Shown piece after piece: positions 23,232-42,460 of a stretch of 64,000 bases of DNA. Where the stretch lies: contig JAMPFD010000005.1 in NCBI GenBank assembly GCA_023664625.1, positions 148,988 to 212,987 on the forward strand, written 5' to 3'. Below the pieces are notes generated by a model. The model was given only the letters and a program-made list of their open reading frames with translations, had not been told where the DNA came from and searched no databases. The number at the start of each line of letters is the position of its first letter. Positions within the stretch are counted from its first letter, which is position 1. Both the position numbers and the translations under genes were made by a program. The stretch comes from Bacillota bacterium (lineage in GTDB: Bacteria > Bacteroidota > Bacteroidia > Bacteroidales > Bacteroidaceae).

Positions 23232-23530
23232 AAATTAGTTTATACTAAAAATGCAGTTGTTTTTCATGCGGTCAGTATGCGGAGCCGAAGGAGCAATGCG
23301 GGCATTGTGACTGAGTGACAACTTTCCCGACAAGCCATACGGGCAGAACGAAACTTATTTCAGCCATGCCGTGGCAAGAAAAGGTGGAATGAAATTCAAC
23401 GTTTTCGTTAAGCCAAATGAGCAGAACGAAACTCGTTTCAGCTATGCTGTGGCGAGAAAAGGTAGAATGAAATTCAACAAGTCTTAGTGAGAAAACATTA
23501 TATTATAAAATAATTATCAATAGTTACTTA
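23219..23530 (-). mobile_element. MITE-like element, copy A (with internal duplication)
   Basis: Ends in AAGTAACTGTTGA and AATAGTTACTTA as terminal inverted repeats. The inside is the reverse complement of copies B (52209-52447) and C (58697-58931). It is longer than they are (312 bp) because a ~72-bp segment (GCAGAACGAAACT to ATGAAATTCAAC) is present twice. No reading frame of a transposase; a non-autonomous element is inferred. Confidence 0.75.
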
Positions 23531-24229: not shown

Positions 24230-24323
24230 ATAAGGTTGAGCATAGCGGACACTGTCACGGAATGATGTTTTCCGTCAAGCCACACAGGCAGAACAAAGCT
24301 TGTTTCAGCCATGCCGTGACGAC
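24230..24323 (+). repeat. MITE-like remnant
   Basis: CCGTCAAGCCACACAGGCAGAAC, then GCTTGTTTCAGCCATGCCGTG, corresponding to the middle of copy A. It leads straight into the tandem repeat, in the same arrangement as at 3371-3649. Confidence 0.6.
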
Positions 24324-24454
24324 AAAGAAATGGGTAAGCGAGAGGAGACCAAGCTTGCCTGGAGTCTCCTGAGCGGGAGGTTCTTATGCAAAGAAACGGG
24401 TAAGCGGGAGGAGACCAAGCTTGCTTGAAGTCTCCTGAGCGGGAGGTTCTTATA
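24324..24454 (+). repeat. Two tandem units of the ~66-bp repeat (second locus)
   Basis: AAAGAAA-GGGTAAGCG to GAGCGGGAGGTTCTTAT, twice. Same family as 3516-3649; each unit again contains the GGAGAC/GTCTCC stem. Confidence 0.75.
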
Positions 24455-25521: not shown

Positions 25522-26724
25522 ATGATGAACCTGAAACGCACTATATCCAAGACAGCACTTCTTACATGTGTATTAACTTTATATACAAGTTGTGGCAGCA
25601 GGCAGATAGAAATCAGTCCGTCCGAGACGCATACCATGACAGTAAGCAACCGGAAGCCCGTAATAAAAGTATATATAGAGAATTCCGGCAGCATGGACGG
25701 ATATATGGCAGACGGCTCACAGCTGAAGGATGCCGTCTTTGACTATGTCAGCGACCTGTCAGCATCGTCAGCGGGAGTAGAGCTCAACTATATAAACAAC
25801 CGGATCATCCCGTTCAAAGGCAATCTGTCAAATTTTATAAAAACCATGACCCCTTCAACGTTCAGGGCGGCCGGAGGAAACAGGGCAAGCTCCGACATCA
25901 GTCACATGCTGTCATCCATCCTTGGCAATATGAGGAAATCCACCGTCAGCATCTTTGTCTCCGACTGCATACTTGACTTTAAAGACGTTGACGCTAAGAA
26001 ATTTCTCAACAACTGTCAGATATCAATAAAGAACGCAGTCAATGAAGGAAGGCGGAAGAATCCCGGTCTTGGGATAGAGATAATAAAGATGTTGTCAGAC
26101 TTCAGCGGAACATATTACTATCCGAACGGAAAAGCGGAGAAACTCAGCAATGTAAAGCGTCCGTATTACATCTGGATTTTCGGCGACAGCGACATTCTGG
26201 CAAGACTGAATACCGATGTCCCTCTGTCACGTCTGGGAAAGTATGGGTTCTGCGGTATCGCGGCATATTCAGGGAAGACAGCCGCTCCGTATGAGATAAC
26301 CAACCGCAGCGGCGCGTCAGCCACCATAAATCCTGTAGGAGGCAAATACGAGGTCACCATAAAGGTTGACCTGCGCTCTACCCTGCAGCCGGAGACCGTC
26401 ATACAGAATCCGGCCAGCTACACTTTCAACAATCCGTCGCTGAGAGTTGAGGAAGTAAAGCCTGTAACAGCAGCCGGCAGTCAGTATACTCATCTGATAA
26501 ACATAACTATCCCTGAGTCAACAACTGTCATAGAAGAGCATCTGTTGTTCAAGGCTCCGGGAACAGCATCATGGGTCAGGGAGTCAAATGATGATTCAGG
26601 CAAGGATATAAGGAAAAACACAGGCAAGACCACCGGCATCCTCCATCTCGTGGAAGGCGTGGCCGATGCCTACAGGAAGGACAATATACTGACGACACTG
26701 AAATTCAAAGTAAAACGTAAATAA
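25522..26724 (+). CDS. vWA-like lipoprotein, first gene of the tubulin/actin/motor locus
   Basis: 400 aa. Lipoprotein signal with Cys24 (TLYTSC). Near residues 50-60 VYIENSGSMDGYM gives a MIDAS-type DxSxS-like motif in which the first Asp is Glu (ENSGSMDGY), followed by a von Willebrand A-type alternation of strands and helices up to about 240 (SIFVSDCILDF, PYYIWIFGDSDIL). The C-terminal ~150 residues look like beta-sandwich material. It should be exported and lipid-anchored, so it would be the envelope component that meets ligands. The vWA reading rests on the MIDAS-like motif; a different Rossmann-type domain is possible. 13 bp separate it from the next gene. Confidence 0.65.
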   Translation: MMNLKRTISKTALLTCVLTLYTSCGSRQIEISPSETHTMTVSNRKPVIKVYIENSGSMDGYMADGSQLKDAVFDYVSDLSASSAGVELNYINNRIIPFKGNLSNFIKTMTPSTFRAAGGNRASSDISHMLSSILGNMRKSTVSIFVSDCILDFKDVDAKKFLNNCQISIKNAVNEGRRKNPGLGIEIIKMLSDFSGTYYYPNGKAEKLSNVKRPYYIWIFGDSDILARLNTDVPLSRLGKYGFCGIAAYSGKTAAPYEITNRSGASATINPVGGKYEVTIKVDLRSTLQPETVIQNPASYTFNNPSLRVEEVKPVTAAGSQYTHLINITIPESTTVIEEHLLFKAPGTASWVRESNDDSGKDIRKNTGKTTGILHLVEGVADAYRKDNILTTLKFKVKRK

Positions 26725-26737
26725 AGACAGAACTATT

Positions 26738-27202
26738 ATGGGACAGTTTTTCGGAAGCATGTATTGCTGGTTTGAAAATTTCTTCGGCATAGAACTTGCC
26801 GACTATCTGTGGGGAAATATATCCCCTGAGCAGACAACCAATTCTTTCATCGGCATAGGATGGCTAATGTTCGCCATCAGTATTGTCGTGGTATTAACCT
26901 ATTATTATTTATTTGACAATCCGCGGCTGAACCACTGGTGGGGGTGGGGAATATTCCTCGTGGTGAATGCCGTTGCAAACTTCGTTGCCGGCTGGCAGTG
27001 GGTTCTGTCAGATTCTTATAACGGAAAGATGATAAAGATTGACCCTGCAAGCAATCTTGAAGTTGCTCTCAATATCGGGGATGGCGAGATGCTGTGTTTC
27101 GGAGTCTCAAACATGTTCCTTTCGATCATGGCATTCTTCCTGTTCAGCATGTGCCTGAAATGGTGGAGCACAAACTGCCGTAATGCACCATTCGTAAAAT
27201 AA
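26738..27202 (+). CDS. Small membrane protein of the tubulin/actin/motor locus
   Basis: 154 aa with three clear membrane segments: FIGIGWLMFAISIVVVLTYYYLF (about 45-68), WGWGIFLVVNAVANFVAGW (about 70-90) and NMFLSIMAFFLFSMCLKWW (about 126-146). An N-terminal amphipathic part precedes them. No family recognised. It lies 16 bp before the tubulin-like gene and may anchor it at the membrane. Confidence 0.65.
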   Translation: MGQFFGSMYCWFENFFGIELADYLWGNISPEQTTNSFIGIGWLMFAISIVVVLTYYYLFDNPRLNHWWGWGIFLVVNAVANFVAGWQWVLSDSYNGKMIKIDPASNLEVALNIGDGEMLCFGVSNMFLSIMAFFLFSMCLKWWSTNCRNAPFVK

Positions 27203-27218
27203 TATATACATAAGCCTT

Positions 27219-28613
27219 ATGTCAAAGATATTTGTATTCGGAATAGGCGGCACAGGTTCCAGAGTGCTCCGTTCGCTCACCATGCTGCTTGCCTCCGGTG
27301 TGAGATTCGGAGCAGACGAGATTGTACCGGTCATAATAGACCCTGACAATGCCAATGCCGACCTCACACGCACAGTGGCACTGCTGAACAACTATGCCTC
27401 GATAAGAAAGTCGCTGCATTTCGGCAGTGACACAGAGAACCGTTTCTTCAGGACGGATATAGAGAGTTTCCTGCCTAACTATACCCTGCACATAAATGAC
27501 ACAGACGATAAGTCATTCAGGGAGTTCATAAACTATGCCTCCATGTCAAAGCCCAACCAGGCTCTGACAAAGATGCTCTTCTCTGACAAGAATCTCGCAT
27601 CCTCAATGGAAGTAGGCTTCAAGGGCAACCCTAACATAGGCAGCGTGGTGCTGAACCAGATAGCACACTCCGATGACTTTCAGGAAATTGCCAATAAGTT
27701 CAGTGCCGGCGACCATATTTTTATCATCAGCTCCATATTCGGCGGTACGGGAGCCAGCGGATTTCCCCTACTGCTGAAAACCCTGCGTACGGGAAACAAC
27801 TTTCCAAACTATAATCTCATAAACCAGGCACAGATAGGAGCGGTCACAATACTTCCGTATTTCAAGCTCAGACCTGACGAGGAAAGCGAGATTGACTCAT
27901 CGACGTTTATCTCAAAGACAAAGTCGGCATTAGCTTACTATGAGAACAACATAATAAAGAACAACAGCATCAATGCACTGTACTATCTTGCCGATGACGT
28001 GGCAAACACATACGACAACCATGAGGGCGGCTCGTCACAGCAGAATGCGGCACATCTCATAGAGTTTCTCGGAGCCACCGCCATCATTGATTTCTCCAAC
28101 TCACAATTTGCAAATCCTGCCAACATGGAGCTCGGCATACGCGAAAGTGACGGTTCGGTATCGTTCGGTTCCTTCTACCGCAAGATGCATGACATGCTCT
28201 ACCGGCCCATGTCTCAGTTTGCCTTGATGTCAAACGCACTTACTCACAAGCTTGACACATACAGAGCGAGCAGCTTTGCCGCCAACAACGGCAATTTCGA
28301 AGACCTGTACTCAGGCGCGTTCTTTAATGAACTCTCTGACTTGCTAAGAAAATATCAGGAATGGCTGAAAGAAATGAAGGACAACAAGCGTCCGCTTGAC
28401 CTGTTCAACCTTAATTGCGGAGACAAGCCGTTCGACCTCGTGACAGGAGTCAAGCCCAAACGCATTCTCAGCAAGCATTCAGACTACAACCTTGTAACTG
28501 ACCGACTGAATTCTGCAGTAAGGAAATGCAAGAGCAAAGGAAAGGAGGACAAATTCCTCGAAATGTTCTTCCATGGAACAAGGCAGCTGGTGTCCGAAAA
28601 GCTCAGCAACTGA
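27219..28613 (+). CDS. Tubulin-like GTPase (Tubulin_2 type)
   Basis: 464 aa. The N-terminus FVFGIGGTGSRVLRSL is the first nucleotide loop of the FtsZ/tubulin superfamily, and IISSIFGGTGASGFPLLLKTLR near residue 170-190 contains the tubulin signature (GGTG[SA][SG]). VIIDPDNANADLTRT follows the position that binds base/ribose. The C-terminal half is unlike FtsZ. The Tubulin_2 family is known from conflict-type operons together with vWA proteins; no individual function is established. In this locus it sits next to an actin-fold ATPase, so two kinds of cytoskeletal nucleotide-binding protein share one operon. Confidence 0.8.
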   Translation: MSKIFVFGIGGTGSRVLRSLTMLLASGVRFGADEIVPVIIDPDNANADLTRTVALLNNYASIRKSLHFGSDTENRFFRTDIESFLPNYTLHINDTDDKSFREFINYASMSKPNQALTKMLFSDKNLASSMEVGFKGNPNIGSVVLNQIAHSDDFQEIANKFSAGDHIFIISSIFGGTGASGFPLLLKTLRTGNNFPNYNLINQAQIGAVTILPYFKLRPDEESEIDSSTFISKTKSALAYYENNIIKNNSINALYYLADDVANTYDNHEGGSSQQNAAHLIEFLGATAIIDFSNSQFANPANMELGIRESDGSVSFGSFYRKMHDMLYRPMSQFALMSNALTHKLDTYRASSFAANNGNFEDLYSGAFFNELSDLLRKYQEWLKEMKDNKRPLDLFNLNCGDKPFDLVTGVKPKRILSKHSDYNLVTDRLNSAVRKCKSKGKEDKFLEMFFHGTRQLVSEKLSN

Positions 28614-28690
28614 AAGTCATAGGGCTGTATACCATACGGATACCACTTGTTAAGGTACCGATAACCTTTTAACCAGAAACAATAACTATT

Positions 28691-31600
28691 ATGTCTAAGA
28701 TATTCCGACTATACAAAGAGGGAACAACAACGTACGAAGACTGGAACAACAGTCCGGCGTACCCCTATAACTCCACAAGCCGCGACACCATAGAAGACCC
28801 TGACGGAGCTTCTGCCCGTCACGAGATAACCTCCATACCTTCGCCATTCGCCCGCATAGACCTTATAAAGACAGCCTTCAAGGAAGTCTGCAAGCCTGTA
28901 GGGAAAACAGGCGTTCCAAATCTCAACGGCAAAACAATATTCCATAAAATGGTGTCAGACACGCTTGACGTGGCAGAGATTTTCTTCAATATAGAGAAGT
29001 TCAAAGATAAGGTGGAGATAATAAAATGGGATGCTTCCGCCATGCTCGCCGAACTTGACAGTTCGGACAGCTCCGGTCACAGATACCTTGCCGATGCGTT
29101 GAGGAAATATATGCAGTCAGATGCCAAGACTTACAATTTCGGCAGCATAAGGAGCATATACCTCCTCAACTACATCGAAGGTCCTGACGAACTGAACATC
29201 ATAGGAGCGACATCACCGGCGACACTGTTTTTCAGCAATGCCAACAGGCTTGAGTATGTCAATGACATATTCTTCGGCGAGGACAAGCCGTTCGATGAAG
29301 ACTACCAGCCTCTGTACAAAAGAGATTTCGAGTTCGTGAAATATTTCTTTGCACTCAGGAAAAGCATCCCTGACTTTGCCGGACTGTTTCCTGAACTTGA
29401 CGCTTATCTGTCATGTACATACCGTGAAATATCCGGCCAAGAGAAGAAGAACATTCTTAACAACTTGCCGGAAACATATCTTGACGGTCTTTCATCCATC
29501 TCTGTCAGCGACGGCAGTCAGTCTGACATCGTGGAAGTAATTGGATATACACTATACAGGAAAACTCCACAGCCTGTGACATCAGTGAGCGACTTTACCA
29601 TAAAGACAACAAAGACCACTTTACTCCGCCCGCTTGTCCTTCCTGTATCTTCAGGAAATAAATACAGTGACCTGCAATATACCACCGGCAAGTGGGGAAC
29701 GTCAAATGCCGCTCCGTATCTTGACAATGAGGGGAATCTCCCGGAAAGGAAACTGCCTTATGACGGAGCACAGCACCCTTATCTCACCATAAGCGATTTT
29801 CTCGAGAATACCATCCTCAGAGTACCTCATACGCTGAACACGGGGAATTACTTTGACGGAAACATCAGTCTCAGGGACAGCAGAATGGCATATCTGCTTC
29901 CGGTAAAGCCACTGCTGTTTGAATATTTCACAGCTGAGGAAATCCGCAGCAACATGCCTGACGGAAAACCTATGCTGGAAATGGAAGCTCTTGCCGGCAA
30001 GTCGGGCATCGCCGTGACGCTGCGTATTCCTGTCAAAGGAAACGGAAAGATAACGTATGTTGAATATACCCGTACATACTATAATAACTCCACTGCCGAC
30101 TTGGAAAACAATAAAGGTGGCCTGGTCGAAACAGATTTCACCGGTTTCGTGATGCCTCAGGTGAAGTTCCTGAATGACAGCGATGCCGTATACAACATCT
30201 CCTGCATACAGTTGCCAAAAGGCAGAACTGAATTCATCTTCTTTAAGGAAGACAAAAAGATACAGCCTAAAAGCATCACCTGCCGTGACAAGGATCTTGG
30301 TTTAAGAAAAGCAGACAATTATCTTCTGGATAAGACAAATTTTGACTTTATTCAGGTAAGGCATCAGTATGGACATTCAGGAGTGATGCTGCCGTTGTTA
30401 AGAGAACAGAAAAACATAGAACACTTTGAGTTTGCCATTGATCTTGGAACATCGAACACACACGTTGAATTCAGGAAAGACGGAGAGAAGCCTGAGGCAT
30501 TCTCTTTCTCTGCAAACGAACGTCCGCTTTGTGAGATGTTCATCCCTGAAAAGAATGAATACGGAGCATCGGTTGATTTAGTTAACGAGACTGATATTAT
30601 GGAGAAAGACTTCATTCCGGGAGAGATAGGACGGAATGATTTGCGTTTCCCTACACGCACGGTGCTGTCGTGTGCGAGGACCATCGACTGGAAAGATGCC
30701 ATTGACCCGTTCACGCTTGTCAACATTCCTTTCACCTACGACAAGCGTGCCGAGTATCCATACAACAACTACAGATGCAACATAAAATGGGGCAACGGTG
30801 ACGACCTGCGTGTCATGGAGTCTTACGTACGCTGCCTCATGCTCATCATCAGGAACAAGGTGCTTCTCAACAACGGTGACCTGCAGAAGACAAAGATAAT
30901 ATGGTTCTACCCTATCAGCATGGCTCCGAAACGACTGCGCAGGCTTAAGGAGACATGGGACGATGCCTATAGGGAATACTTCGGCGAGGGTACTACTGAA
31001 AGCATGACGGAATCGGCCGCGCCTATACAGTATTTCTTCAAAAGATACTCCACCGCCACTGACCTTGTCAATGTGGACATAGGCGGCGGCACAACCGACA
31101 TTGCCTTTGCCAAGGACAAAAACATCAGCTATGTCACATCTTTCCGCTTTGCATCGAACGTTCTTTTTGAGGATTCATTCTCTGAACTTGAAGACAGCAA
31201 TGGAATCATTGACAGATATAAGGGAGAAATCCGGAAAATCTTCGAGGAGAAGAAACTTTCCGAATTGGCAACCGTATTTGGCAGTAAGAACAACGGAAGA
31301 CCGGCGAATATGGCATCGTTCCTTTTCGGACTGAAGGACAACACTATTGCAAAGAGCAACGGAATAGATATAAAGACTCTTGACTTTAACAGGATGCTTC
31401 AGGAGGACGAGAATTACAGGATAGTGTTCATCATATTCTATACATCCATTATCTACCATATAGCACATATTGTCAGGAATCTCGGACTTGACGTGCCACG
31501 GCATATCTCGTTCAGCGGAAACGGCAGCAAGGTGATACGCATTGTCACAACCGACTCTAAACTGCTCGCAAGATATACAAAGCTGGTGTTTGAGAAAATC

Positions 31601-32083
31601 CTCGGCAGACCTTACGGCAAGGAACTGGAACTGCTGGGACTGGAACGTGACTCCAACCCAAAGGAATCAACCTGCAAGGGCGGAATCATAGGCTGTGAGG
31701 ATGAGGATAACCATGACAAGACCATTGTCTTCAAGAGTGACTGTTCCGGACTGGTGACAGATGCCGACACATACGCCGCCATCAACGATACATATAAACA
31801 GCATACCGTAGAAGCCGTGGATGATTTCTTCATGTTTGTACTTGAAGACATGAACAAGGCTTTCAACTTTGACAGGAATTTCGGAGTGACGGCACTGTCG
31901 GTACAGATTGCCAAAGAAACGGCAGGGAAAGACCTCATGACTTACCTGGAAAAGGGTATAATCCAGAGAATGGAAGAGACAGAAGGCACTGACAGAATAG
32001 AGGAAACTTTCTTCTACTATCCTATAAAAGGTGTGCTGCAGGCCATCTCCGCAGAGATTTACAACGAATTACAACAATCGTAA
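28691..32083 (+). CDS. SrfB-like giant actin-fold ATPase
   Basis: 1130 aa. The first ~575 residues have no motif I recognise. From about 578 an actin/Hsp70-type ATPase domain begins: phosphate-1 FAIDLGTSNTHVEFRK (near 582), phosphate-2 NVDIGGGTTDIAFAKD (near 795), and adenosine-side HISFSGNGSKVIRI (near 937). Architecture and length resemble the SrfB 'virulence factor' family. It is cytoplasmic. The function of SrfB is unknown; the old name comes from a Salmonella gene regulated by SsrB. Between tubulin-like and channel genes it probably supplies ATP-dependent assembly or signalling. Confidence 0.75.
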   Translation: MSKIFRLYKEGTTTYEDWNNSPAYPYNSTSRDTIEDPDGASARHEITSIPSPFARIDLIKTAFKEVCKPVGKTGVPNLNGKTIFHKMVSDTLDVAEIFFNIEKFKDKVEIIKWDASAMLAELDSSDSSGHRYLADALRKYMQSDAKTYNFGSIRSIYLLNYIEGPDELNIIGATSPATLFFSNANRLEYVNDIFFGEDKPFDEDYQPLYKRDFEFVKYFFALRKSIPDFAGLFPELDAYLSCTYREISGQEKKNILNNLPETYLDGLSSISVSDGSQSDIVEVIGYTLYRKTPQPVTSVSDFTIKTTKTTLLRPLVLPVSSGNKYSDLQYTTGKWGTSNAAPYLDNEGNLPERKLPYDGAQHPYLTISDFLENTILRVPHTLNTGNYFDGNISLRDSRMAYLLPVKPLLFEYFTAEEIRSNMPDGKPMLEMEALAGKSGIAVTLRIPVKGNGKITYVEYTRTYYNNSTADLENNKGGLVETDFTGFVMPQVKFLNDSDAVYNISCIQLPKGRTEFIFFKEDKKIQPKSITCRDKDLGLRKADNYLLDKTNFDFIQVRHQYGHSGVMLPLLREQKNIEHFEFAIDLGTSNTHVEFRKDGEKPEAFSFSANERPLCEMFIPEKNEYGASVDLVNETDIMEKDFIPGEIGRNDLRFPTRTVLSCARTIDWKDAIDPFTLVNIPFTYDKRAEYPYNNYRCNIKWGNGDDLRVMESYVRCLMLIIRNKVLLNNGDLQKTKIIWFYPISMAPKRLRRLKETWDDAYREYFGEGTTESMTESAAPIQYFFKRYSTATDLVNVDIGGGTTDIAFAKDKNISYVTSFRFASNVLFEDSFSELEDSNGIIDRYKGEIRKIFEEKKLSELATVFGSKNNGRPANMASFLFGLKDNTIAKSNGIDIKTLDFNRMLQEDENYRIVFIIFYTSIIYHIAHIVRNLGLDVPRHISFSGNGSKVIRIVTTDSKLLARYTKLVFEKILGRPYGKELELLGLERDSNPKESTCKGGIIGCEDEDNHDKTIVFKSDCSGLVTDADTYAAINDTYKQHTVEAVDDFFMFVLEDMNKAFNFDRNFGVTALSVQIAKETAGKDLMTYLEKGIIQRMEETEGTDRIEETFFYYPIKGVLQAISAEIYNELQQS

Positions 32084-32099
32084 TAAAAAAAAAACTATC

Positions 32100-33059
32100 A
32101 TGAAACTCAGAAAAATGCTGATGATATTGACAGTGGCATCACTAATAACCGGTGTTGGAATATATATTTACATTTATAATCTTAATACCCCTTCTGAAGA
32201 CACACTGGCAAATAATGAAAACACATGTGCTGGAGATTCTATTTCACAGGGATATGACAATAATACGAATGAGATGCAAGGACACGCTTGTGATTCTATT
32301 TTACAGGTAGTGAAAGATTATATGGAAGAATATTATCAAAAAAAGTTAATTGATAAAGATTCTATTCCACAGGCAGTGAAAGATTATATGGAAGAACATT
32401 ATCAAAAAAAGGCACAGACTGAAAAGGATGATTTATCCGGATACATTTCATGGATTCCTGGAATTATCGGACTTTTCATGGCTGTCATTGCCATGAGAGG
32501 AGCAGGTAAGTACAGGAAGGAACTCAAAAAGTACCAGGAAAGACTTGACAGACATAGAAAAGACATAGAAGGGCTGAAATCTAACCAAAGCAGCAATTTC
32601 CATGTCCCGTCTTCTCATGATAAGCCGTCATTCCAAGTCAGAGATTTGGAAACCAGAATCTCTAATTTGGAGAGACTCTCACGACAAAAGACGGTTCCGG
32701 TTGCCACTCCTTCTCCTAAACCAACTGAAATATCTATTCCTAAAAACAAAGTAAGGAAAGGATATTTCGACACTCCTGTAAAAGGAGGAGGAACCGGATA
32801 TTTCAACGAACTTGTCGAGAATGTGGAGTATGCCAATTTTGATGTGGAGGTGACAGACAACAAGGCTGAGTTCAAGCCGCGGCTGTCTGCAAAGCAGCTT
32901 TGCTACAGCGATGTCATGAAACCGGCCGTTGACATTGACTATAACGGTATACCGAAGGAAGAGGCCACACGTTTTTCAGTGATGGAGAAAGGCAAGGCCG
33001 TACTTCATGGTGACAGATGGATTATTGAGAAAAAGGTTGTCATTAAACTTGTAAAATAA
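32100..33059 (+). CDS. Membrane protein with coiled coil and internal repeats
   Basis: 319 aa from ATG 32100, 16 bp after the SrfB-like gene. One membrane segment at 8-27 (ILTVASLITGVGIYIYIYN) and a second near 118-137 (WIPGIIGLFMAVIAMRGAG). Between them two nearly identical units end in VKDYMEEYYQKK / VKDYMEEHYQKK. After the second segment comes a coiled coil (KYRKELKKYQERLDRHRKDI), a Pro/Ser/Thr linker and a beta-rich C-terminal domain. The loop with the repeats would be periplasmic. Family unknown; likely a structural part of the envelope complex. Confidence 0.6.
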   Translation: MKLRKMLMILTVASLITGVGIYIYIYNLNTPSEDTLANNENTCAGDSISQGYDNNTNEMQGHACDSILQVVKDYMEEYYQKKLIDKDSIPQAVKDYMEEHYQKKAQTEKDDLSGYISWIPGIIGLFMAVIAMRGAGKYRKELKKYQERLDRHRKDIEGLKSNQSSNFHVPSSHDKPSFQVRDLETRISNLERLSRQKTVPVATPSPKPTEISIPKNKVRKGYFDTPVKGGGTGYFNELVENVEYANFDVEVTDNKAEFKPRLSAKQLCYSDVMKPAVDIDYNGIPKEEATRFSVMEKGKAVLHGDRWIIEKKVVIKLVK

Positions 33060-33092
33060 CGTTTAACTCACTCATACACTAATCAAAGAATA

Positions 33093-34604
33093 ATGGGAAA
33101 TTTGGTACTTATAATAATAGCTGTCATAATATGTGTCCAGGTCTATTTCTTCTGGACTAATCTGCAGCGTATGAAGCAGTACAGCAATATTTTCAGTGAG
33201 AAAGACTCATGGGGATTCAGAAAAGATTCAATGTCAGGATTTATATCTGATATCTATGGTAAGGGTAATAATATTTTCAAGGATATAGTCTCATCAATAA
33301 ATAAATATCTTGGCAACAACTCCGGCTCCGTCATTGACTTCGGGCTTCTGAAAGATGCCGTTGACCGTCATTGTGAGTCCGTGGAGAACGACATTACCAC
33401 CCAGACCCCTATTCCGCTCTACTGCGGACTGGCCGGAACCATGGCAGGAGTAATAATAGGCCTTTTTGACCTGCTGCACTCTGATGCCATTCTCACACTT
33501 ATGGGCAGCGGCGCGGGGCAAATAGACCAGTCCGCAGCGGCAGCGGCAGGAGGCATTGATGCACTGCTGCAGGGTGTGGCATGGGCCATGGTAGCGTCAA
33601 TATGCGGTATAATCCTGACAACGGCTAACTCTGTACTCTTCAAGGAATACAAGCTGAAGGAAGAGGAAGGCAAGAACTCTTTTCTTTCATGGATGCAGGC
33701 GGAACTTCTTCCGGAACTGCCGTCGGACACTTCACAGGCTCTCAACCAGATGGTCAAGAACCTCAATAATTTCAACAATACATTCTCCCAGAACACATCA
33801 AATCTCGGCAGCGCGCTGAAGACTGTAAATGAGTCATACAAGATACAGGCTGATGTCATCAAGGCAGTTCACGACATGGACTTCATGAAGATGGCAAAGG
33901 CTAATGTCAAGGTGCTTGAAGAGCTGCAGAAATGTACGGACAAGCTTGCATGGTTTAACAACTATCTCTCAGAGATAGAGGGTTACACTGCGGCGATACA
34001 CAGGTTTGAGACTCTGTTTAACCAGCAGGCTGACAGAGTCCACGTTCTTGAAGAGATAAGAGATTTCTTCAACCGTCACAAAAGTGAGATAGCAGAGACC
34101 ACAGCTGATGCTGACCGTGAACTGAAAATGGCCCTCACTTATATCAGGGATTCCACATATTCAAACGTCAACTCACTTCACCAAAGCTTTGTTGAGCAGA
34201 GCGAGACCTTCAAGCAGATACTAAAAGAAGAGAAGGAGGAATTTGAGAAATTCACAGATGACCTGAAGGTTCAGTTCAGCGAGCAGATGAGACAGATGCC
34301 TCAGACAGCCAAGCAGCTTGACGAAATAGCAAAGATTCCTTCTCGCCTTAACACACTTATTGAAAAGATGGAAAAGTCAAATTCCAATCTTGCTGAAGAG
34401 GTGTCACGCGCGCTTGCGGCCTTGACAGCGACAAGAGGCAATGTGACAACGACAGACAGTGACGGTAAAACCGTGATAGTTCCATCACGTGGCGACATGC
34501 CACTCTGGATGCAGATAACGGGTTGGGCGGCATTGGTTATCATGGCCATTGTCCTGTTGCTGAATTTCCTGTATAATATTTATTATATATTCTATGTCGA
34601 ATAA
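33093..34604 (+). CDS. MotA/TolQ/ExbB-type (ZorA-like) proton-channel subunit
   Basis: 503 aa. Membrane segments lie near 3-22, near 107-130 (YCGLAGTMAGVIIGLFDLL) and near 165-195 (LLQGVAWAMVASICGIILTTA); the last two carry the small-residue pattern of the MotA/TolQ/ExbB channel core. A long helical, coiled-coil region follows (about 215-460, e.g. RELKMALTYIRD), as in the tail of ZorA. Unlike known ZorA it ends in another membrane segment (WMQITGWAALVIMAIVLLLNFLYN). It overlaps the MotB-like gene by 11 bp, the normal arrangement of a channel pair. Confidence 0.8.
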   Translation: MGNLVLIIIAVIICVQVYFFWTNLQRMKQYSNIFSEKDSWGFRKDSMSGFISDIYGKGNNIFKDIVSSINKYLGNNSGSVIDFGLLKDAVDRHCESVENDITTQTPIPLYCGLAGTMAGVIIGLFDLLHSDAILTLMGSGAGQIDQSAAAAAGGIDALLQGVAWAMVASICGIILTTANSVLFKEYKLKEEEGKNSFLSWMQAELLPELPSDTSQALNQMVKNLNNFNNTFSQNTSNLGSALKTVNESYKIQADVIKAVHDMDFMKMAKANVKVLEELQKCTDKLAWFNNYLSEIEGYTAAIHRFETLFNQQADRVHVLEEIRDFFNRHKSEIAETTADADRELKMALTYIRDSTYSNVNSLHQSFVEQSETFKQILKEEKEEFEKFTDDLKVQFSEQMRQMPQTAKQLDEIAKIPSRLNTLIEKMEKSNSNLAEEVSRALAALTATRGNVTTTDSDGKTVIVPSRGDMPLWMQITGWAALVIMAIVLLLNFLYNIYYIFYVE

Positions 34605-35229
34605 AAAAGAATCATTTTTCTGGACAAGCTATTCCGACCTCATGACAAGTCTGTTCTTTGTCATGCTTGTACTGTTTGTGCTTGTCATAGTGCTCCTGCA
34701 CAAGCGAATGGAGGCTACCGAAGCCCAGCTGGAAGAAATAAAGAAAGTCGAGCAGTCAACAAAAGACCTCAGCAAGAAAGATAATTTCATCTATCGCCCT
34801 GACTATAAGAAATATGTGCTTAATATTGAAGTGCAGTATCCTGACGGCTCGGCCGATATAGGAGAAATGATCGCTGATAATCCGAAGGAACAGTTCCGGA
34901 AGCTGATTGCCGCAGGGCGTGAGATTCAGAGTTTCCTTGAAGAACATAACAAGTATCAGTATATCCTTATCATTGAGGGGCAGGCTTCAAGAGACAATTA
35001 TATATACAATTATGAATTAAGCTACCAGCGTGCACTCGGACTTATGCGCTTCTGGATAAATGATGCCAAGATTGATTTTGCGGATAACTGCGAGATACTC
35101 ATTTCCGGAAGCGGTGACGGACAGCTTGACACTCATTCCATGCGCGAAAGCGGCAATGAGAGGAAGAACCAGCGCTTCCTGATACATATACTCCCTAAAA
35201 ATATCTTTGAACAGCATACGGAACGGTGA
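34594..35229 (+). CDS. MotB/OmpA-type (ZorB-like) stator subunit
   Basis: 211 aa. One N-terminal membrane helix, with SYSDLMTSLFFVMLVLFVLVIVLL; its Asp14 matches the proton-carrying Asp of MotB and ZorB. A short coiled-coil linker follows, then an OmpA-like peptidoglycan-binding domain (LIIEGQASRDNYIYNYELSYQRALGLM, ISGSGDG...NERKNQRFLIHI). Together with the upstream gene it forms an ion-driven stator anchored in peptidoglycan. The conserved Asp implies proton or sodium flow rather than a purely structural role. Confidence 0.85.
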   Translation: MSNKKESFFWTSYSDLMTSLFFVMLVLFVLVIVLLHKRMEATEAQLEEIKKVEQSTKDLSKKDNFIYRPDYKKYVLNIEVQYPDGSADIGEMIADNPKEQFRKLIAAGREIQSFLEEHNKYQYILIIEGQASRDNYIYNYELSYQRALGLMRFWINDAKIDFADNCEILISGSGDGQLDTHSMRESGNERKNQRFLIHILPKNIFEQHTER

Positions 35230-35303
35230 CTGATGGTATGAATACTCCGGAACGCATAGAACAATATGGTTTAACTGATAATATAAAAACATAGGCTGAT
35301 AAA

Positions 35304-36050
35304 ATGAAAGTACATAGTCTGCTCATAACAATCATTTCCATGGCTCTCCTGTGCTCCTGTGCCCATAAGTCAGGGCATAGAAAGCCTGACGGTCTTTCCG
35401 CTGTCAGGAAACAAGCACGGCATTCTTCCGGTTCTGGAAAAAGAAGCACTGATGTGCCTGTCGGCAATAATAATGATGACAGCGACAGACTTGACGGCTC
35501 GAAGATTTTTGCAAAATATAATACGGCGGTATTCATGGTGTACACTTCCGACGGCTACAACACTTATCAGGGGTCGGGCTTCTTCATCAACGGCGACGGA
35601 CTGGCTGTAAGCAACTATCATGTGTTCAAGGGTACGGGCATAGGGAATGAATGTATAAAACTCTCCGGAAGCAAGAATATATATAAGGTGGCTGAAATAA
35701 TACATAGAAGTGAGGACGAGGATTTTATCATTTTCCGTGTTGGCATAACCGGAACAAGCTTCATTCCTGTGGCACGGCAGAAACCTAAGGTTGGAGAGAA
35801 AGTCTATGCCATAGGAAGTCCGAAAGGTTTGGAAAACACCTTCTCCTCAGGAGAAGTGTCACAGTGGCGTGACACTAACCTCATGCAGATTTCCGCCCTG
35901 ATAGACCACGGCAGCAGCGGCGGTGCGCTGATAAACGAATATGGAGAGGTGGTGGGAATAACCTCCGGAACATTCTATGAAGGTTCACAGGCTAATCTTA
36001 ACTATGCTTGGAGCATAGATGTCATAAAACCGTATGTCAAATGTAAATGA
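35304..36050 (+). CDS. Trypsin-like serine protease lipoprotein (S1C type)
   Basis: 248 aa. Lipobox LLCSC with Cys19. The chymotrypsin-fold triad is visible: His in VSNYHVFKG (near 107), Asp in EDEDFIIFRV (near 138) and Ser in IDHGSSGGALIN (near 205). YAIGSPKGLENTFSSGEVSQW is the usual strand before the serine. It is DegP/HtrA-like without a PDZ domain and probably faces the periplasm. It lies 74 bp after the MotB-like gene in the same direction, so it may act on an envelope partner of this locus. Confidence 0.85.
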   Translation: MKVHSLLITIISMALLCSCAHKSGHRKPDGLSAVRKQARHSSGSGKRSTDVPVGNNNDDSDRLDGSKIFAKYNTAVFMVYTSDGYNTYQGSGFFINGDGLAVSNYHVFKGTGIGNECIKLSGSKNIYKVAEIIHRSEDEDFIIFRVGITGTSFIPVARQKPKVGEKVYAIGSPKGLENTFSSGEVSQWRDTNLMQISALIDHGSSGGALINEYGEVVGITSGTFYEGSQANLNYAWSIDVIKPYVKCK

Positions 36051-36134
36051 GTTTATTCATGAAGAAAATAAATATGACATAGTTTTGTAATGTGCTTTTA
36101 TGACCATGAACCATTGTTGTTTAGTAACCATACA

Positions 36135-36175
36135 TATAATTATGGCAACAACAATGGATTATTGCCATAATTATA
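36135..36175. promoter_or_regulatory. Perfect 14-bp inverted repeat at the lysozyme promoter
   Basis: TATAATTATGGCAA and its exact reverse complement, 13 bp apart (36135-36148, 36162-36175). The right arm ends right before the -7 box of the following gene. It may be an operator, or the terminator of the protease gene (no T run). Confidence 0.65.
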
Positions 36176-36176
36176 T

Positions 36177-36184
36177 TACCTTTG
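36177..36184 (+). promoter_or_regulatory. -7 box for the GH25 lysozyme gene
   Basis: TACCTTTG matches TAnnTTTG. No TTTG is found at the -33 position; the inverted repeat takes that place, as expected of an activator- or repressor-controlled promoter. Confidence 0.55.
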
Positions 36185-36211
36185 TGGCAGGAAAATATAT
36201 TACAACTTATA

Positions 36212-36964
36212 ATGAAGAATAATATCATAGTGTGGATTACCGTTCTGATATGCCTCGTGCTGCCGTTCTCTGCCATAACGCTGGTGGGACTGAGGCGGTG
36301 CGGGAGCCATAAGCAGGAGACGAGGCAGGGGAAGAAGCCTGACCCTTCACGCTGTGAGCATCCTGACGGCATAGACCTGAGCCACCATAATGAGGCATAC
36401 GACTGGAAGAAGGTTGACGCAAGATTTGTGTATGTCAGAGCTACTTCCGGTACGACACTGAAGGACCGGAGGTATGACATACACAGGAAGGCGGCAGTGA
36501 GGCATGATATCCCTGTCGGAGCTTATCATTTTCTGGTGGCTGATGCCGGAGCGGAAGAGCAGTTCAGGCATTTCTCTTCGGTGGTGAGGAAAGGGCACAT
36601 CACGCTGCGCCCTATGCTTGACATCGAGGAGTCCAGGTACTGGAATGCTCCGAAGGATTTTACTGCCGGGGATGTACGGAGACTTGTACGCCGGTGGTGT
36701 GACCTGTGCAAGGAGAGGTACGGCAAGGCTCCTGTGATATATATTACGGAGAATCTGCATCGGAAATTCGGGATGGACAAGGGGTTTGAGGACTGTCTAT
36801 GGTGGGTTGCCAATTATAATGATGTGCGGAATTTTGAAAACAAATGCCGCATTCCATATATCCTGCATCAATATTCTGACAAAAAGAATGTCGAAGGCTT
36901 TTACGGTCATATAGACTGCAACCGCTTTGCAACAGGAAAAGACGTTGATGACCTGAAATTATAA
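36212..36964 (+). CDS. GH25-family lysozyme, membrane-anchored or secreted
   Basis: 250 aa from ATG 36212 (MKNNIIVWITVLICLVLPFS), with an N-terminal hydrophobic segment that may be signal or anchor. GH25 muramidase domain: GIDLSHHNEAYDWKKV (first catalytic Asp), FVYVRATSGTTLKD, PVGAYHFL, MLDIEES (DxE catalytic pair near 136-138), PVIYITENLH, WWVANYN and ILHQYSD. It hydrolyses the glycan of peptidoglycan. It closes the locus and has a promoter of its own with a perfect inverted repeat. It could open the wall for the MotAB-like machine or act against other cells. Confidence 0.88.
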   Translation: MKNNIIVWITVLICLVLPFSAITLVGLRRCGSHKQETRQGKKPDPSRCEHPDGIDLSHHNEAYDWKKVDARFVYVRATSGTTLKDRRYDIHRKAAVRHDIPVGAYHFLVADAGAEEQFRHFSSVVRKGHITLRPMLDIEESRYWNAPKDFTAGDVRRLVRRWCDLCKERYGKAPVIYITENLHRKFGMDKGFEDCLWWVANYNDVRNFENKCRIPYILHQYSDKKNVEGFYGHIDCNRFATGKDVDDLKL

Positions 36965-37948: not shown

Positions 37949-37979
37949 TTGGATGTTACACCAATAATTATTACTTTTG
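37949..37979 (+). promoter_or_regulatory. Promoter of the Lrp-type regulator
   Basis: TTGG (37949-37952), 19 bp, TACTTTTG (37972-37979), ~40 bp before the gene; agrees with TTTG-N19-TAnnTTTG apart from the -33 box. Confidence 0.7.
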
Positions 37980-40567: not shown

Positions 40568-42460
40568 ATGATACAGGTACGTGACATCAAAGACATTGGT
40601 AATTACATAGACTCACTCCTGATAAGAAACGAGAGTGACGACTTGGAATACAAGAGTGCCGCCGGTGGATTTCCCGGCAGCTTCTGGGACACCTATTCCG
40701 CCTTTGCCAACACAGAAGGTGGGACTATCATACTTGGCGTATCAGAAAAGAGCAACGGAATCTATCTTGACAGTCTGACGGAAGAACAGATAGAAAAATA
40801 CCGCAAAGACTTCTGGAATAATGTCAACAACCGTTCCACCATCAGTTGTAATCTTATGAAAACCGAAGACCTGCAGGTCACGGAATATAAAGGTCACCGT
40901 CTGATGCTCTTCTTCATTCCGCGTGCACAAAGAGAACAACGGCCGGTGTTCCGCTCTACAACGCCATATGGCGGAACATTCAAAAGGAATCATGAAGGAG
41001 ACTATAAATGCACGGAACGGGAAGTTCAACGTATGTTCGCCGATGCCAACATATCACATCCTTCTGACTGCCGTATCCTGAGAAACTATTCAATGGACGA
41101 TATTGACATACCGTCACTCAGACAGTACCGGCAATTATTCAGTCTTGCAAAACCAACTCACCCATGGCTTGCATTGAACGACCAAGAATTACTAAAAAAG
41201 CTTGGCGGCTACCGTAAAGACCGCGAAAGCGGTGAAGAAGGACTTACCGTAGCAGGATTACTAATGTTCGGAAAGAGCGAAGCTATCACAGATTCAGAAT
41301 GCTGTCCGTTTTTTTTTCCTGACTATCAAGAGAAACTTGAACCTGAGCTGAGATGGACAAACCGTATATATCCTGACGGGACATGGGAAGCCAATCTCTT
41401 CCAATTCTACCGACATGTTCTGCCAAGATTGCAGTCCGTACTCCCAAAGCCTTTCATGCTCAAGGATAATATACGCCGGGAAGAGACTCCGGCACATATT
41501 GCTGTACGCGAAGCACTGATCAACTGCTGCATACATGCTGACTATACCGAGAATGCCTCCTTGCTGATTCAACTTCACAAGGACAAAATGGTCTTCTCCA
41601 ATCCGGGGACAATGCTTGTTTCCAAGAACCAATACTATCAAGGCGGTGAGAGCGTATGCCGAAATAAGTCCCTGCAGACCATGTTCATGTTGCTCGGCTC
41701 GGCAGAGAAAGCCGGAAGCGGAGTTGACAAAATTCTTAGCGGATGGAAAGAATCCAACTGGCGCATACCGATATTGGAAATAAAATGCCGTCCTGACAAG
41801 TGTGTACTTACAATGAAGATGGAGACCGTAATGGATGATGCCACAGAACAGCAGCTGACCGATTTATTCGGAAAACACATACTGGGTGTGGATCATAATA
41901 CGATGATAGTACTTAATACGGCTTGTGCCGACCGGTCGGTGACAAACGAAAGTTTGCGCCATGTACTTAACATGCATAAGGCTGAAATTAGCGACCTGCT
42001 GAGAAAAATGTGCAAGGAAAAATTGCTTGTCAGAAAAGGATACGGACGTGGCACAACTTATCACTTGCCGAAAAAGGTTGCAACCTCGGATACGAAAGAT
42101 TGCAACCTCAAGAACGAAAGGTTGCAACCTCAAGAACAAAAGGTTGCAACCTCGGATACGAAAGATTGCAACCTCAGATACGAAAGGTTGCAACCTCAAG
42201 AACAAAAGGTTGCAACCTCGGATAGCGATATATTGAAGAAAAGGCTTCCACGTGAAGAGCTACATAACGTGATATGCAATATCTGTAATGAATGGAAAAC
42301 CCTTGACGAAATTGCCGGCTCAATTCATAGAAGCCGCAATTATATCAGGAACCGCATCCTTTCCGAAATGCTCGAAGGCGAACTCATCGTCATGATGTAC
42401 CCAGGAATCCCTAATCATCCGAAACAGAAATATAAAGTCAAAAACAATACAGCCCGATAA
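40568..42460 (+). CDS. AlbA_2/Schlafen-type ATP-binding regulator with repeat-encoded segment
   Basis: 630 aa. Residues ~10-130 form the AlbA_2 (Schlafen-like AAA_4) domain: ESDDLEYKSAAGG and FANTEGGTIILGVSE. The middle contains an HATPase-like part (REALINCCIHADYTENA, SAEKAGSGVDKIL). Helix-turn-helix regions lie near 440-490 and in the last ~70 residues (LDEIAGSIHRSRNYIRN). Between them, about residues 500-552, a repetitive stretch of the type KVATSDTKDCNLKNERLQPQEQ is encoded by seven exact 22-bp DNA units. Such proteins are putative transcriptional regulators, often linked to mobile or defence loci. The repeat may vary in copy number between strains. Confidence 0.8.
   Translation: MIQVRDIKDIGNYIDSLLIRNESDDLEYKSAAGGFPGSFWDTYSAFANTEGGTIILGVSEKSNGIYLDSLTEEQIEKYRKDFWNNVNNRSTISCNLMKTEDLQVTEYKGHRLMLFFIPRAQREQRPVFRSTTPYGGTFKRNHEGDYKCTEREVQRMFADANISHPSDCRILRNYSMDDIDIPSLRQYRQLFSLAKPTHPWLALNDQELLKKLGGYRKDRESGEEGLTVAGLLMFGKSEAITDSECCPFFFPDYQEKLEPELRWTNRIYPDGTWEANLFQFYRHVLPRLQSVLPKPFMLKDNIRREETPAHIAVREALINCCIHADYTENASLLIQLHKDKMVFSNPGTMLVSKNQYYQGGESVCRNKSLQTMFMLLGSAEKAGSGVDKILSGWKESNWRIPILEIKCRPDKCVLTMKMETVMDDATEQQLTDLFGKHILGVDHNTMIVLNTACADRSVTNESLRHVLNMHKAEISDLLRKMCKEKLLVRKGYGRGTTYHLPKKVATSDTKDCNLKNERLQPQEQKVATSDTKDCNLRYERLQPQEQKVATSDSDILKKRLPREELHNVICNICNEWKTLDEIAGSIHRSRNYIRNRILSEMLEGELIVMMYPGIPNHPKQKYKVKNNTAR
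42076..42217 (+). repeat. Seven 22-bp units with GGTTGCAACC palindrome inside a gene
   Basis: Palindromic cores GGTTGCAACC or GATTGCAACC start at 42076, 42098, 42120, 42142, 42164, 42186 and 42208, an exact 22-bp period. Since 22 is not a multiple of three, successive units are read in successive frames, giving a 22-residue protein period (VATSD, CNLKN, LQPQE). Confidence 0.92.

What the first reader, a model, noticed from the sequence alone, without database searches (positions are those of the whole stretch)
25522..36964. Operon joining a tubulin-like GTPase, a giant SrfB-like actin-fold ATPase and a MotAB/ZorAB-like ion-driven stator with envelope hydrolases
Seen: nine consecutive plus-strand genes, most with gaps under 80 bp or overlapping (the lysozyme has its own -7 box), encode a vWA-like lipoprotein, a 3-TM protein, a Tubulin_2-type protein (GGTGAS), an 1130-aa protein with actin-type phosphate loops, a TM/coiled-coil protein, a MotA/ZorA-like and MotB/ZorB-like pair (conserved Asp14), a trypsin-like lipoprotein and a GH25 lysozyme. 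Known: ZorAB stators drive Zorya anti-phage defence; SrfB and Tubulin_2 proteins are of unknown function; vWA and tubulin-like proteins occur in conflict-type operons. Inferred: an envelope-spanning machine in which ion flow is coupled to two cytoskeletal NTPases, possibly defence, antagonism or envelope stress. I know of no description of this exact combination.
Basis: partly seen in the sequence, partly recalled or inferred. Interest (0 to 1): 0.9.

Follow-up and report, generated by a model that had tools for sequence, protein, structure and literature searches.

The report
Modular tubulin–actin–motor envelope system
A patchily distributed bacterial gene cassette pairs a tubulin-like and an actin-like protein with a probable ion-driven membrane motor and swappable protein- or DNA-cutting enzymes; it looks like a little-described defence or competition machine of the cell envelope, but its function has not been tested.

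Summary
In detail: nine co-directional genes, 25522-36964. Two parts of the reading change. (1) The conserved unit is four genes: vWA-fold lipoprotein, 3-TM protein, tubulin-fold protein, 1130-aa actin-fold protein. In 112 collected loci the actin gene follows the tubulin in 111 of 111 with enough sequence, and a vWA gene precedes it in 95 of 101. (2) Behind the core lies an exchangeable module: a ZorAB-like stator pair (60 of 89 loci), usually followed by proteins, mostly lipoproteins, with one of several unrelated catalytic domains (trypsin, retropepsin-like aspartyl protease, NucA-type or EEP nuclease: 46 of 60 stator loci, 3 of 23 without MotA/MotB). Trypsin and aspartyl protease never co-occur in the 60 (25, 13, both 0), share near-identical leaders behind the lipid Cys, and the protease state needs at least 21 changes on the tubulin tree. 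The GH25 lysozyme is not part of the unit; 'SrfB-like' is not supported beyond the actin fold. Best reading: a PMF-coupled, cytoskeleton-scaffolded envelope conflict (probably anti-invader) system, related to but distinct from Zorya, FtsZl1/vWA operons and GAP1-N2 systems. Anatomy is strong; function is inferred. Novelty: new variant of a known (predicted) kind.

The parts
25522..26724 (+). vWA-fold lipoprotein (400 aa; lipid Cys24; MIDAS-like ENSGSM with Glu in place of the first Asp)
26738..27202 (+). 3-TM protein (154 aa), core gene
   Evidence: hydropathy; family in 93 of 101 loci
27219..28613 (+). tubulin/FtsZ-fold GTPase-like protein (464 aa), FtsZl1/Tubulin_2-related
   Evidence: PF00091 5.1e-7, PF13809 3.5e-5, both sub-threshold; FGGTGA invariant in 19 aligned members
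28691..32083 (+). 1130-aa protein: about 570-aa N-terminal region plus actin/MreB/HSP70-fold ATPase (DLGTSNT 584-590, DIGGGTTD 796-803, SGNGS 942-946)
32100..33059 (+). membrane/coiled-coil protein (319 aa), poorly conserved linker gene (scanned without its first Met, from 32103)
33093..34604 (+). MotA/ZorA-like stator subunit with long coiled-coil tail and C-terminal TM (503 aa)
34594..35229 (+). MotB/ZorB-like stator subunit (211 aa), ion-binding-type Asp15, OmpA-like domain
35304..36050 (+). trypsin-like lipoprotein effector (248 aa), lipid Cys19, triad His106/Asp140/Ser205, basic leader CAHKSGHRK

Best explanation
The locus is one example of a modular envelope conflict system. Core (shown by synteny): a vWA-fold lipoprotein, a 3-TM protein, a tubulin-fold protein and a large actin-fold protein, kept together. 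Module (shown): a ZorAB-like stator pair, present or absent as a unit in most loci, followed by mostly lipid-anchored proteases and/or nucleases whose catalytic domain is swapped behind a common basic leader. Mechanism (inferred): the tubulin- and actin-fold proteins form a nucleotide-dependent assembly on the cytoplasmic face of the inner membrane, tied through the 3-TM and linker proteins to the stator; the stator uses ion flow and its OmpA-like, probably peptidoglycan-binding domain to sense or transmit mechanical change; the vWA lipoprotein is the periplasmic sensor or adaptor; activation positions or licenses the protease/nuclease, which would cut invading DNA or envelope-crossing proteins (phage, conjugation or competitor toxins). 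Which target, and whether information runs inward or outward, is not known.
For: Core linkage: actin in 111 of 111, vWA in 95 of 101, TM in 93 of 101 loci; vWA, tubulin and actin genes also in line on the one cyanobacterial plasmid opened. The same 5 of 198 phylum genomes carry a close tubulin and a long actin match. Patchy spread, own genome counted: 18 of 60 genomes of the genus, 25 of 201 of the family, 6 of 198 of the phylum. Stator: ZorB E=8.1e-15; best solved relative 8vvn_B, E=3e-14, which PMC11890865 (passages seen) gives as Shewanella type I ZorAB; Asp15 in 25 of 25. Effector slot: 46 of 60 loci with MotB vs 3 of 23 without MotA/MotB (Fisher p=1.5e-7); Tryp 25, AspP 13, both 0. Catalytic residues kept: trypsin H, D and S 31 of 31; AspP DTG 16 of 16. 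Shared leader: AHKSG[HR] and CSRSG-type leaders on both trypsins and AspPs; net charge higher than in 110 other predicted lipoproteins of the same loci (p=1.5e-12). On the tubulin tree of 89 loci the protease state needs at least 21 changes, the stator state 7.
Against: No functional data. No ZorC-G match and no other clear defence system component in the nine genes (the trypsin matches the protease part of an RT-Protease model, E=2.5e-19). Flanks are not a clear defence island: 7 PADLOC models at E<=1e-20 among 78 flanking ORFs, one member each, no control run. 14 of 60 stator loci have none of the four effector families. NucA: DRGH-type motif in only 6 of 18, though the following Gly-His is in 17 of 18, and 6 of the NucA copies carry no lipobox by my rule (L047, L048, L076, L113, L136, L137). 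EEP leaders (n=2) are not basic. Loci are phylogenetically non-independent and many are MAG contigs, so the p-values are optimistic. Four loci came from IMG/VR contigs.
Confidence: 0.45

Rival explanations
1. An envelope-maintenance or membrane-remodelling machine, as Makarova and Koonin proposed for FtsZl1 operons: the cytoskeletal NTPases and stator act on the inner membrane and peptidoglycan, and the lipoprotein hydrolases process the cell's own envelope.
For: FtsZl1 + vWA + OmpA operons interpreted that way (PMC2875224, parts 1-4 of 5 read). Some stator-less loci carry LysM, SH3 and L,D-transpeptidase (L096) or Hedgehog-N-like (L105; peptidase fold recalled) genes; MotB has an OmpA-like domain.
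Against: Patchy presence even within a genus (18 of 60), frequent protease swaps, and nucleases in the slot, hard to fit with envelope upkeep.
Confidence: 0.25
2. A scavenging or uptake machine: a PMF-driven stator energises import while proteases and nucleases digest captured protein or DNA for nutrition.
For: Exported hydrolases next to a Ton/Tol/Mot-related motor.
Against: No outer-membrane receptor family recurs among the accessory proteins scanned (only the first 25 of 42 families were listed); tubulin and actin folds unexplained.
Confidence: 0.1
3. Contact-dependent antagonism or surface motility: the machine exports or moves lipoprotein effectors to attack neighbours.
For: Effector variability and shared leader.
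Against: I recognised no immunity gene or secretion apparatus in the families listed (not searched for as such); the basic leader is unlike the acidic surface-export signal known for Bacteroidota (recalled, not tested).
Confidence: 0.1

Closest known systems
Zorya (ZorAB-based anti-phage systems)
   Same: Stator pair is ZorAB-like (ZorB E=8.1e-15; nearest solved structure is type I ZorB 8vvn_B, E=3e-14); long coiled-coil tail on the A subunit; nucleases among associated genes in some loci.
   Different: No ZorC, D, E, F or G match in the nine genes; has a tubulin, actin and vWA core; effectors are mostly lipid-anchored (the cytoplasmic place of Zorya effectors is recalled).
FtsZl1/Tubulin_2 membrane-remodelling operons (Makarova and Koonin 2010, PMC2875224)
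   Same: Tubulin-fold protein beside vWA and OmpA-like genes; Bacteroides caccae is among the species of their alignment (Figure 1 legend).
   Different: Named partners are P-loop GTPases and protein kinases; an actin-fold protein, a stator and an effector slot are not described in parts 1-4 of 5 that I read; supplements with the gene lists not seen.
GAP1-N2 GTPase-centric conflict systems (Kaur et al. 2020, PMC7159879)
   Same: Tubulin and vWA proteins, membrane/peptidoglycan placement, a trypsin in some, variable effectors (section 29).
   Different: Centred on TRAFAC GTPase and GAP1/FNIII, with HSP70 in a separate theme; tubulin theme restricted to firmicutes and actinobacteria; the words stator and Zorya do not occur.
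SrfB of SrfABC
   Same: Large protein with actin-type phosphate motifs; profile comparison E=3.1e-5, probability 73%.
   Different: Only 99 columns around phosphate 2 align; no SrfA or SrfC found among the nine proteins.

Membership tests
Zorya | ZorA and ZorB stator pair | tested here: met
   ZorB1 E=8.1e-15; ZorA weaker at 7.6e-5, over the tail; NCBIfam ZorB1 34.8 bits, far below its cut-off of 400
Zorya | ZorC/ZorD, ZorE or ZorF/ZorG partner | tested here: not met
   PADLOC scan of all nine proteins at E<=1 found none
FtsZl1/Tubulin_2 (PF13809) | score above the curated cut-off | tested here: not met
   window protein 23.7 bits vs 27; 16 of 19 aligned members match at E<=0.01, best 2.8e-6 (their bit scores were not listed)
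FtsZl1 operon | vWA partner and OmpA-domain partner | tested here: met
   vWA fold; OmpA E=2.1e-4, sub-threshold
FtsZl1 operon | P-loop GTPase or protein kinase partner | tested here: not met
   none among the nine proteins; one accessory protein of 78 in other loci is a kinase
GAP1-N2 system | TRAFAC GTPase plus GAP1/FNIII genes | tested here: inconclusive
   no such Pfam match among the nine proteins, but no dedicated GAP1 model was searched
SrfB (PF07520) | match to the SrfB profile over its length | tested here: not met
   no hit for the window protein; 1 of 31 aligned members, E=0.0083; hhalign to one SrfB homologue aligns 99 columns only
Actin/HSP70/MreB fold | fold with phosphate 1, phosphate 2 and adenosine motifs | tested here: met
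   filament formation not testable
MotAB-type stator | conserved TM Asp in the B subunit | tested here: met
   Asp15 in 25 of 25
MotAB-type stator | A5B2 assembly and ion flow | not testable with these tools
   -
vWA domain | vWA fold | tested here: met
   partial matches (TM-score to target mostly 0.1-0.4), and the second structural look was unavailable
vWA domain | canonical MIDAS DxSxS | tested here: not met
   first Asp is Glu (ExSxS-type) in the window and in most of 32 aligned members; L128 keeps Asp

The most novel reading that the evidence does not exclude
A bacterial immune or antagonism machine in which tubulin-fold and actin-fold assemblies are mechanically coupled to an ion-driven rotary stator to arm interchangeable lipid-anchored proteases and nucleases in the periplasm: a class of its own, in which two cytoskeletal folds and a rotary motor serve one conflict system.
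Probability: 0.3. Interest if true: 0.93.

Novelty: new variant of a known kind. Interest (0 to 1): 0.78.

Why it matters
FtsZl1/Tubulin_2 proteins were given only a predicted role in 2010 (PMC2875224), and I saw no later test of it. Here the tubulin is tied to an actin-fold partner, a ZorAB-like motor and a frequently swapped effector slot, which turns a general 'membrane remodelling' proposal into directly testable predictions: phage or plasmid protection, dependence on stator Asp15, and active periplasmic protease or nuclease. If confirmed it would widen the use of rotary stators in immunity beyond Zorya and show two cytoskeletal folds working in one conflict system.

Tried and rejected
Rejected: GH25 as a component. 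Its profile finds no second copy in the other 111 loci as held (1 hit, the window's), its best genus relative is 38% identical and lies in a genome without a tubulin match, and it has its own promoter-like box behind an inverted repeat (the full -33/-7 pattern does not match there). Rejected: SrfB membership. Rejected: membership of Zorya.

Led nowhere or inconclusive: PDB sequence search with the tubulin profile gave nothing at E<=0.01; with the MotA profile mostly coiled-coil matches; a defence-island test on 78 flanking ORFs without a control; the phage collection had no tubulin match; a Tubulin_2 family search of the own genome found nothing at E<=0.001. One search compared an alignment with one of its own rows and carries no information; it is not used. 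The distance correlations are confounded by shared species history and are only mentioned. Iterated profiles of the coiled-coil gene g5, and to a lesser degree MotA, can drift; g5 counts are not used.
Full report
What is there. Pfam, PADLOC and NCBIfam scans give clear matches for the trypsin (8.8e-24), GH25 (5.3e-28) and ZorB-like protein (8.1e-15), sub-threshold ones for the tubulin (PF00091 5.1e-7; PF13809 3.5e-5) and none that bears on the vWA protein. An AlphaFold model of the vWA protein from 32 sequences (pLDDT 89.9) matches, among its top 50, many vWA or integrin I-domain structures, but weakly: 4 matches at E<=0.001, best 6.2e-5, low TM-scores. A model of the 1130-aa protein from 31 sequences (pLDDT 86.8, pTM 0.75) matches MreB/Mbl, DnaK and actin-related proteins (E from 2.5e-9; 698 matches at E<=0.001); phosphate 1 (D584), phosphate 2 (D796) and S942-G943 are invariant in the 31 rows. 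The N-terminal 570 residues were not assigned.

What is conserved. Three pairs have identical tubulins and matching contig lengths (L028/L066, L030/L075, L034/L119), so there are at most 109 distinct loci. With enough flanking sequence, vWA is found in 95 of 101, the TM gene in 93 of 101 and the actin gene in 111 of 111. Loci lacking vWA by this test are L042, L051, L052, L125, L133 and L138; L051, L052 and L138 are distant or differently built. In 198 phylum genomes, 6 have the tubulin (5 at E<1e-100; one at 3.8e-20); the same 5 have a long actin-protein match (301 to 1422 bits, one cut by a contig end), while the other actin-profile hits are at most 29.5 bits and lie around the phosphate-2 motif, as expected of FtsA/MreB-type proteins (at most 3 candidates per genome were scored). 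Tree distances of core and stator proteins correlate (Spearman 0.65-0.91, 66 loci; permuted maximum under 0.3), but shared species history could cause this too.

The exchangeable module. Among 89 loci with at least 9.5 kb downstream, 60 have both MotA- and MotB-like genes, 6 MotA only and 23 neither. On a tubulin tree of the 89 loci (quick search, 22 of 83 inner branches weak) the stator state needs 7 changes, at least 5 forced by starred branches, against 20.2 in shuffles: clustered, but changed several times. Neighbours were scanned in bulk: of 147 non-redundant accessory proteins I passed 78, namely 77 of the 82 not labelled g5 plus one so labelled; five directly behind the actin gene were left out by me (L089, L103, L119, L122, L126). 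Families: Endonuclease_NS 7, DUF6804 5, trypsin 5, gag-asp/aspartyl protease 4, SNase 2, Exo_endo_phos 2 of 78 (first 25 of 42 families shown). In 78 of 150 control ORFs from the same loci more than 1.5 kb away (taken in list order, not at random) none of these families shows among the first 25 of 91 families listed; families with one member beyond that list cannot be seen. Ten accessory proteins were checked individually: five Endonuclease_NS, two aspartyl proteases, two EEP, one DUF429. With local profiles seeded from those, 46 of 60 stator loci and 3 of 23 loci without MotA/MotB carry at least one of trypsin, AspP, NucA or EEP on the same strand within 14.5 kb (Fisher p=1.5e-7); trypsin 25, AspP 13, both 0 (p=3e-4). 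Loci are related, so these p-values are optimistic. The protease state (trypsin, AspP, none) needs at least 21 changes on the tree (no shuffle run for it); for example L062 (trypsin) is sister to L061 and L093 (AspP plus NucA).

A shared leader on unrelated enzymes. Trypsins and AspPs keep the lipid Cys (31 of 31; 16 of 16) and catalytic residues (H, D and S 31 of 31; DTG 16 of 16). Behind the Cys, AHKSGH occurs on trypsins (window, L055, L059 and others) and AHKSGR/H on AspPs (L061, L071, L093); CSRSG-type leaders occur on trypsins (L106, with CSHSGR in L116) and AspPs (L098, L104, L117); a basic SHTSGKNRR heads a NucA (L061). Net charge of the 15 residues after Cys averages +2.3, +2.9 and +1.8 for trypsin (24), AspP (15) and NucA (12) against -0.15 for 110 other predicted lipoproteins of the same loci and -0.18 for 71 vWA lipoproteins (p=1.5e-12 and 2.7e-11; EEP, n=2, averages 0). 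My lipobox rule is a simple heuristic: it misses visible leaders (e.g. L029, L076 trypsins) and finds none on six NucA copies. I read this as catalytic domains exchanged behind a common address tag. That the tag keeps them facing the periplasm is inference; the acidic surface-export signal of Bacteroidota is recalled, not tested.

Stator. The B subunit's Asp15 is invariant in 25 of 25. Its profile's best solved relative is 8vvn_B (E=3e-14), then 8qyd_F (1.6e-7), then a MotB (1.6e-4). PMC11890865 (passages seen) gives 8VVN as Shewanella sp. ANA-3 type I ZorAB. The A subunit is less certain: PF01618 in 7 of 25 aligned members, PADLOC ZorA 7.6e-5, and a PDB match to 8vvn_C at E=0.0023 over the channel part among many coiled-coil matches. 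It has a long tail and a C-terminal hydrophobic segment.

GH25. Its profile finds no second copy at the other loci. All 60 genus genomes have some GH25-type match, but the best relative of this one is 38% identical, in a genome without a tubulin match. A perfect 14-bp inverted repeat and a TACCTTTG box separate it from the trypsin gene; folding of the gap gives z=-2.36. I treat it as a neighbour; a recently recruited effector is not excluded. Downstream, the genes at 37977 and 38705 (regulator- and dipeptidase-like by my reading, not scanned) are conserved together in all five genus genomes looked at; three of these, G413, G150 and G404, lack a tubulin match, and G431 and G441 have one elsewhere. 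So the cassette and GH25 sit beside a conserved block.

Spread. Tubulin relatives occur, own genome counted, in 18 of 60 genus genomes, 25 of 201 family genomes and 6 of 198 phylum genomes; among named contigs in Flavobacterium, Spirosoma, Hymenobacter, Sphingobacterium and a Leptospiraceae MAG; and in five cyanobacterial plasmid records. In the one of these that I opened (L054), vWA, a 169-aa ORF not matched by the TM profile, tubulin and actin stand in line, without a stator. No phage record matched. Contigs titled Oscillibacter, Acetatifactor and Sulfuricurvum are MAGs and may be misbinned.

Known relatives. Makarova and Koonin 2010 (PMC2875224; parts 1-4 of 5 read; supplements not seen) described FtsZl1 with vWA, GTPase, kinase and OmpA partners and proposed membrane remodelling. 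Kaur et al. 2020 (PMC7159879; section 29 and passages) described GTPase-centric conflict systems with tubulin and vWA, and HSP70 in a separate theme. PMC9871819 (passages) treats Tubulin_2 proteins as divergent and sets them aside. My ten searches of the open library, judged from their listings, showed no paper joining tubulin, an actin-fold protein, a ZorAB-like stator and swappable lipoprotein effectors; most subscription papers are outside that library.

Judgement. Anatomy and modularity are well supported. The conflict-system reading rests on patchy presence, swapped nucleases and proteases, and the ZorAB kinship; it is the best of several (0.45). Membrane remodelling (0.25) remains open. 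The locus fails tested defining features of Zorya and SrfB, falls below the curated Tubulin_2 score, and shows no GAP1-N2 GTPase, so I file it as a new variant of a known, so far only predicted, kind.

Noticed in passing
window 42072-42224: About seven copies of a 22-bp unit (66-bp higher-order unit, 2.3 copies) inside the 630-aa ORF at 40568-42460, giving in-frame repeats.
   Followed up: no
window 24323-24453 and 23332-23478: Two tandem repeats (66 bp x 2.0; 78 bp x 1.9) in the gap upstream of the cassette.
   Followed up: no
L105:16571-17551: Hedgehog N-terminal signalling domain (PF01085, E=2.5e-13) in a gene close behind the actin and linker genes of a locus with no stator in the stretch held.
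   Followed up: no
L053:15657-19676: Stator-less cassette followed by a weak zinc-ribbon protein, MatE, RmuC and low-molecular-weight phosphatase genes, possibly only neighbours.
   Followed up: partly
L135-L138: Four IMG/VR contigs carry the tubulin with the actin gene; whether they are phage, plasmid or misassigned was not settled.
   Followed up: no
L051, L052, L138: Distant tubulin loci with a 1128-1504-aa partner weakly matched by the actin profile and other large genes in line; possibly a sister system.
   Followed up: no
window 36135-36175: Perfect 14-bp inverted repeat between the trypsin and GH25 genes, terminator- or operator-like.
   Followed up: partly
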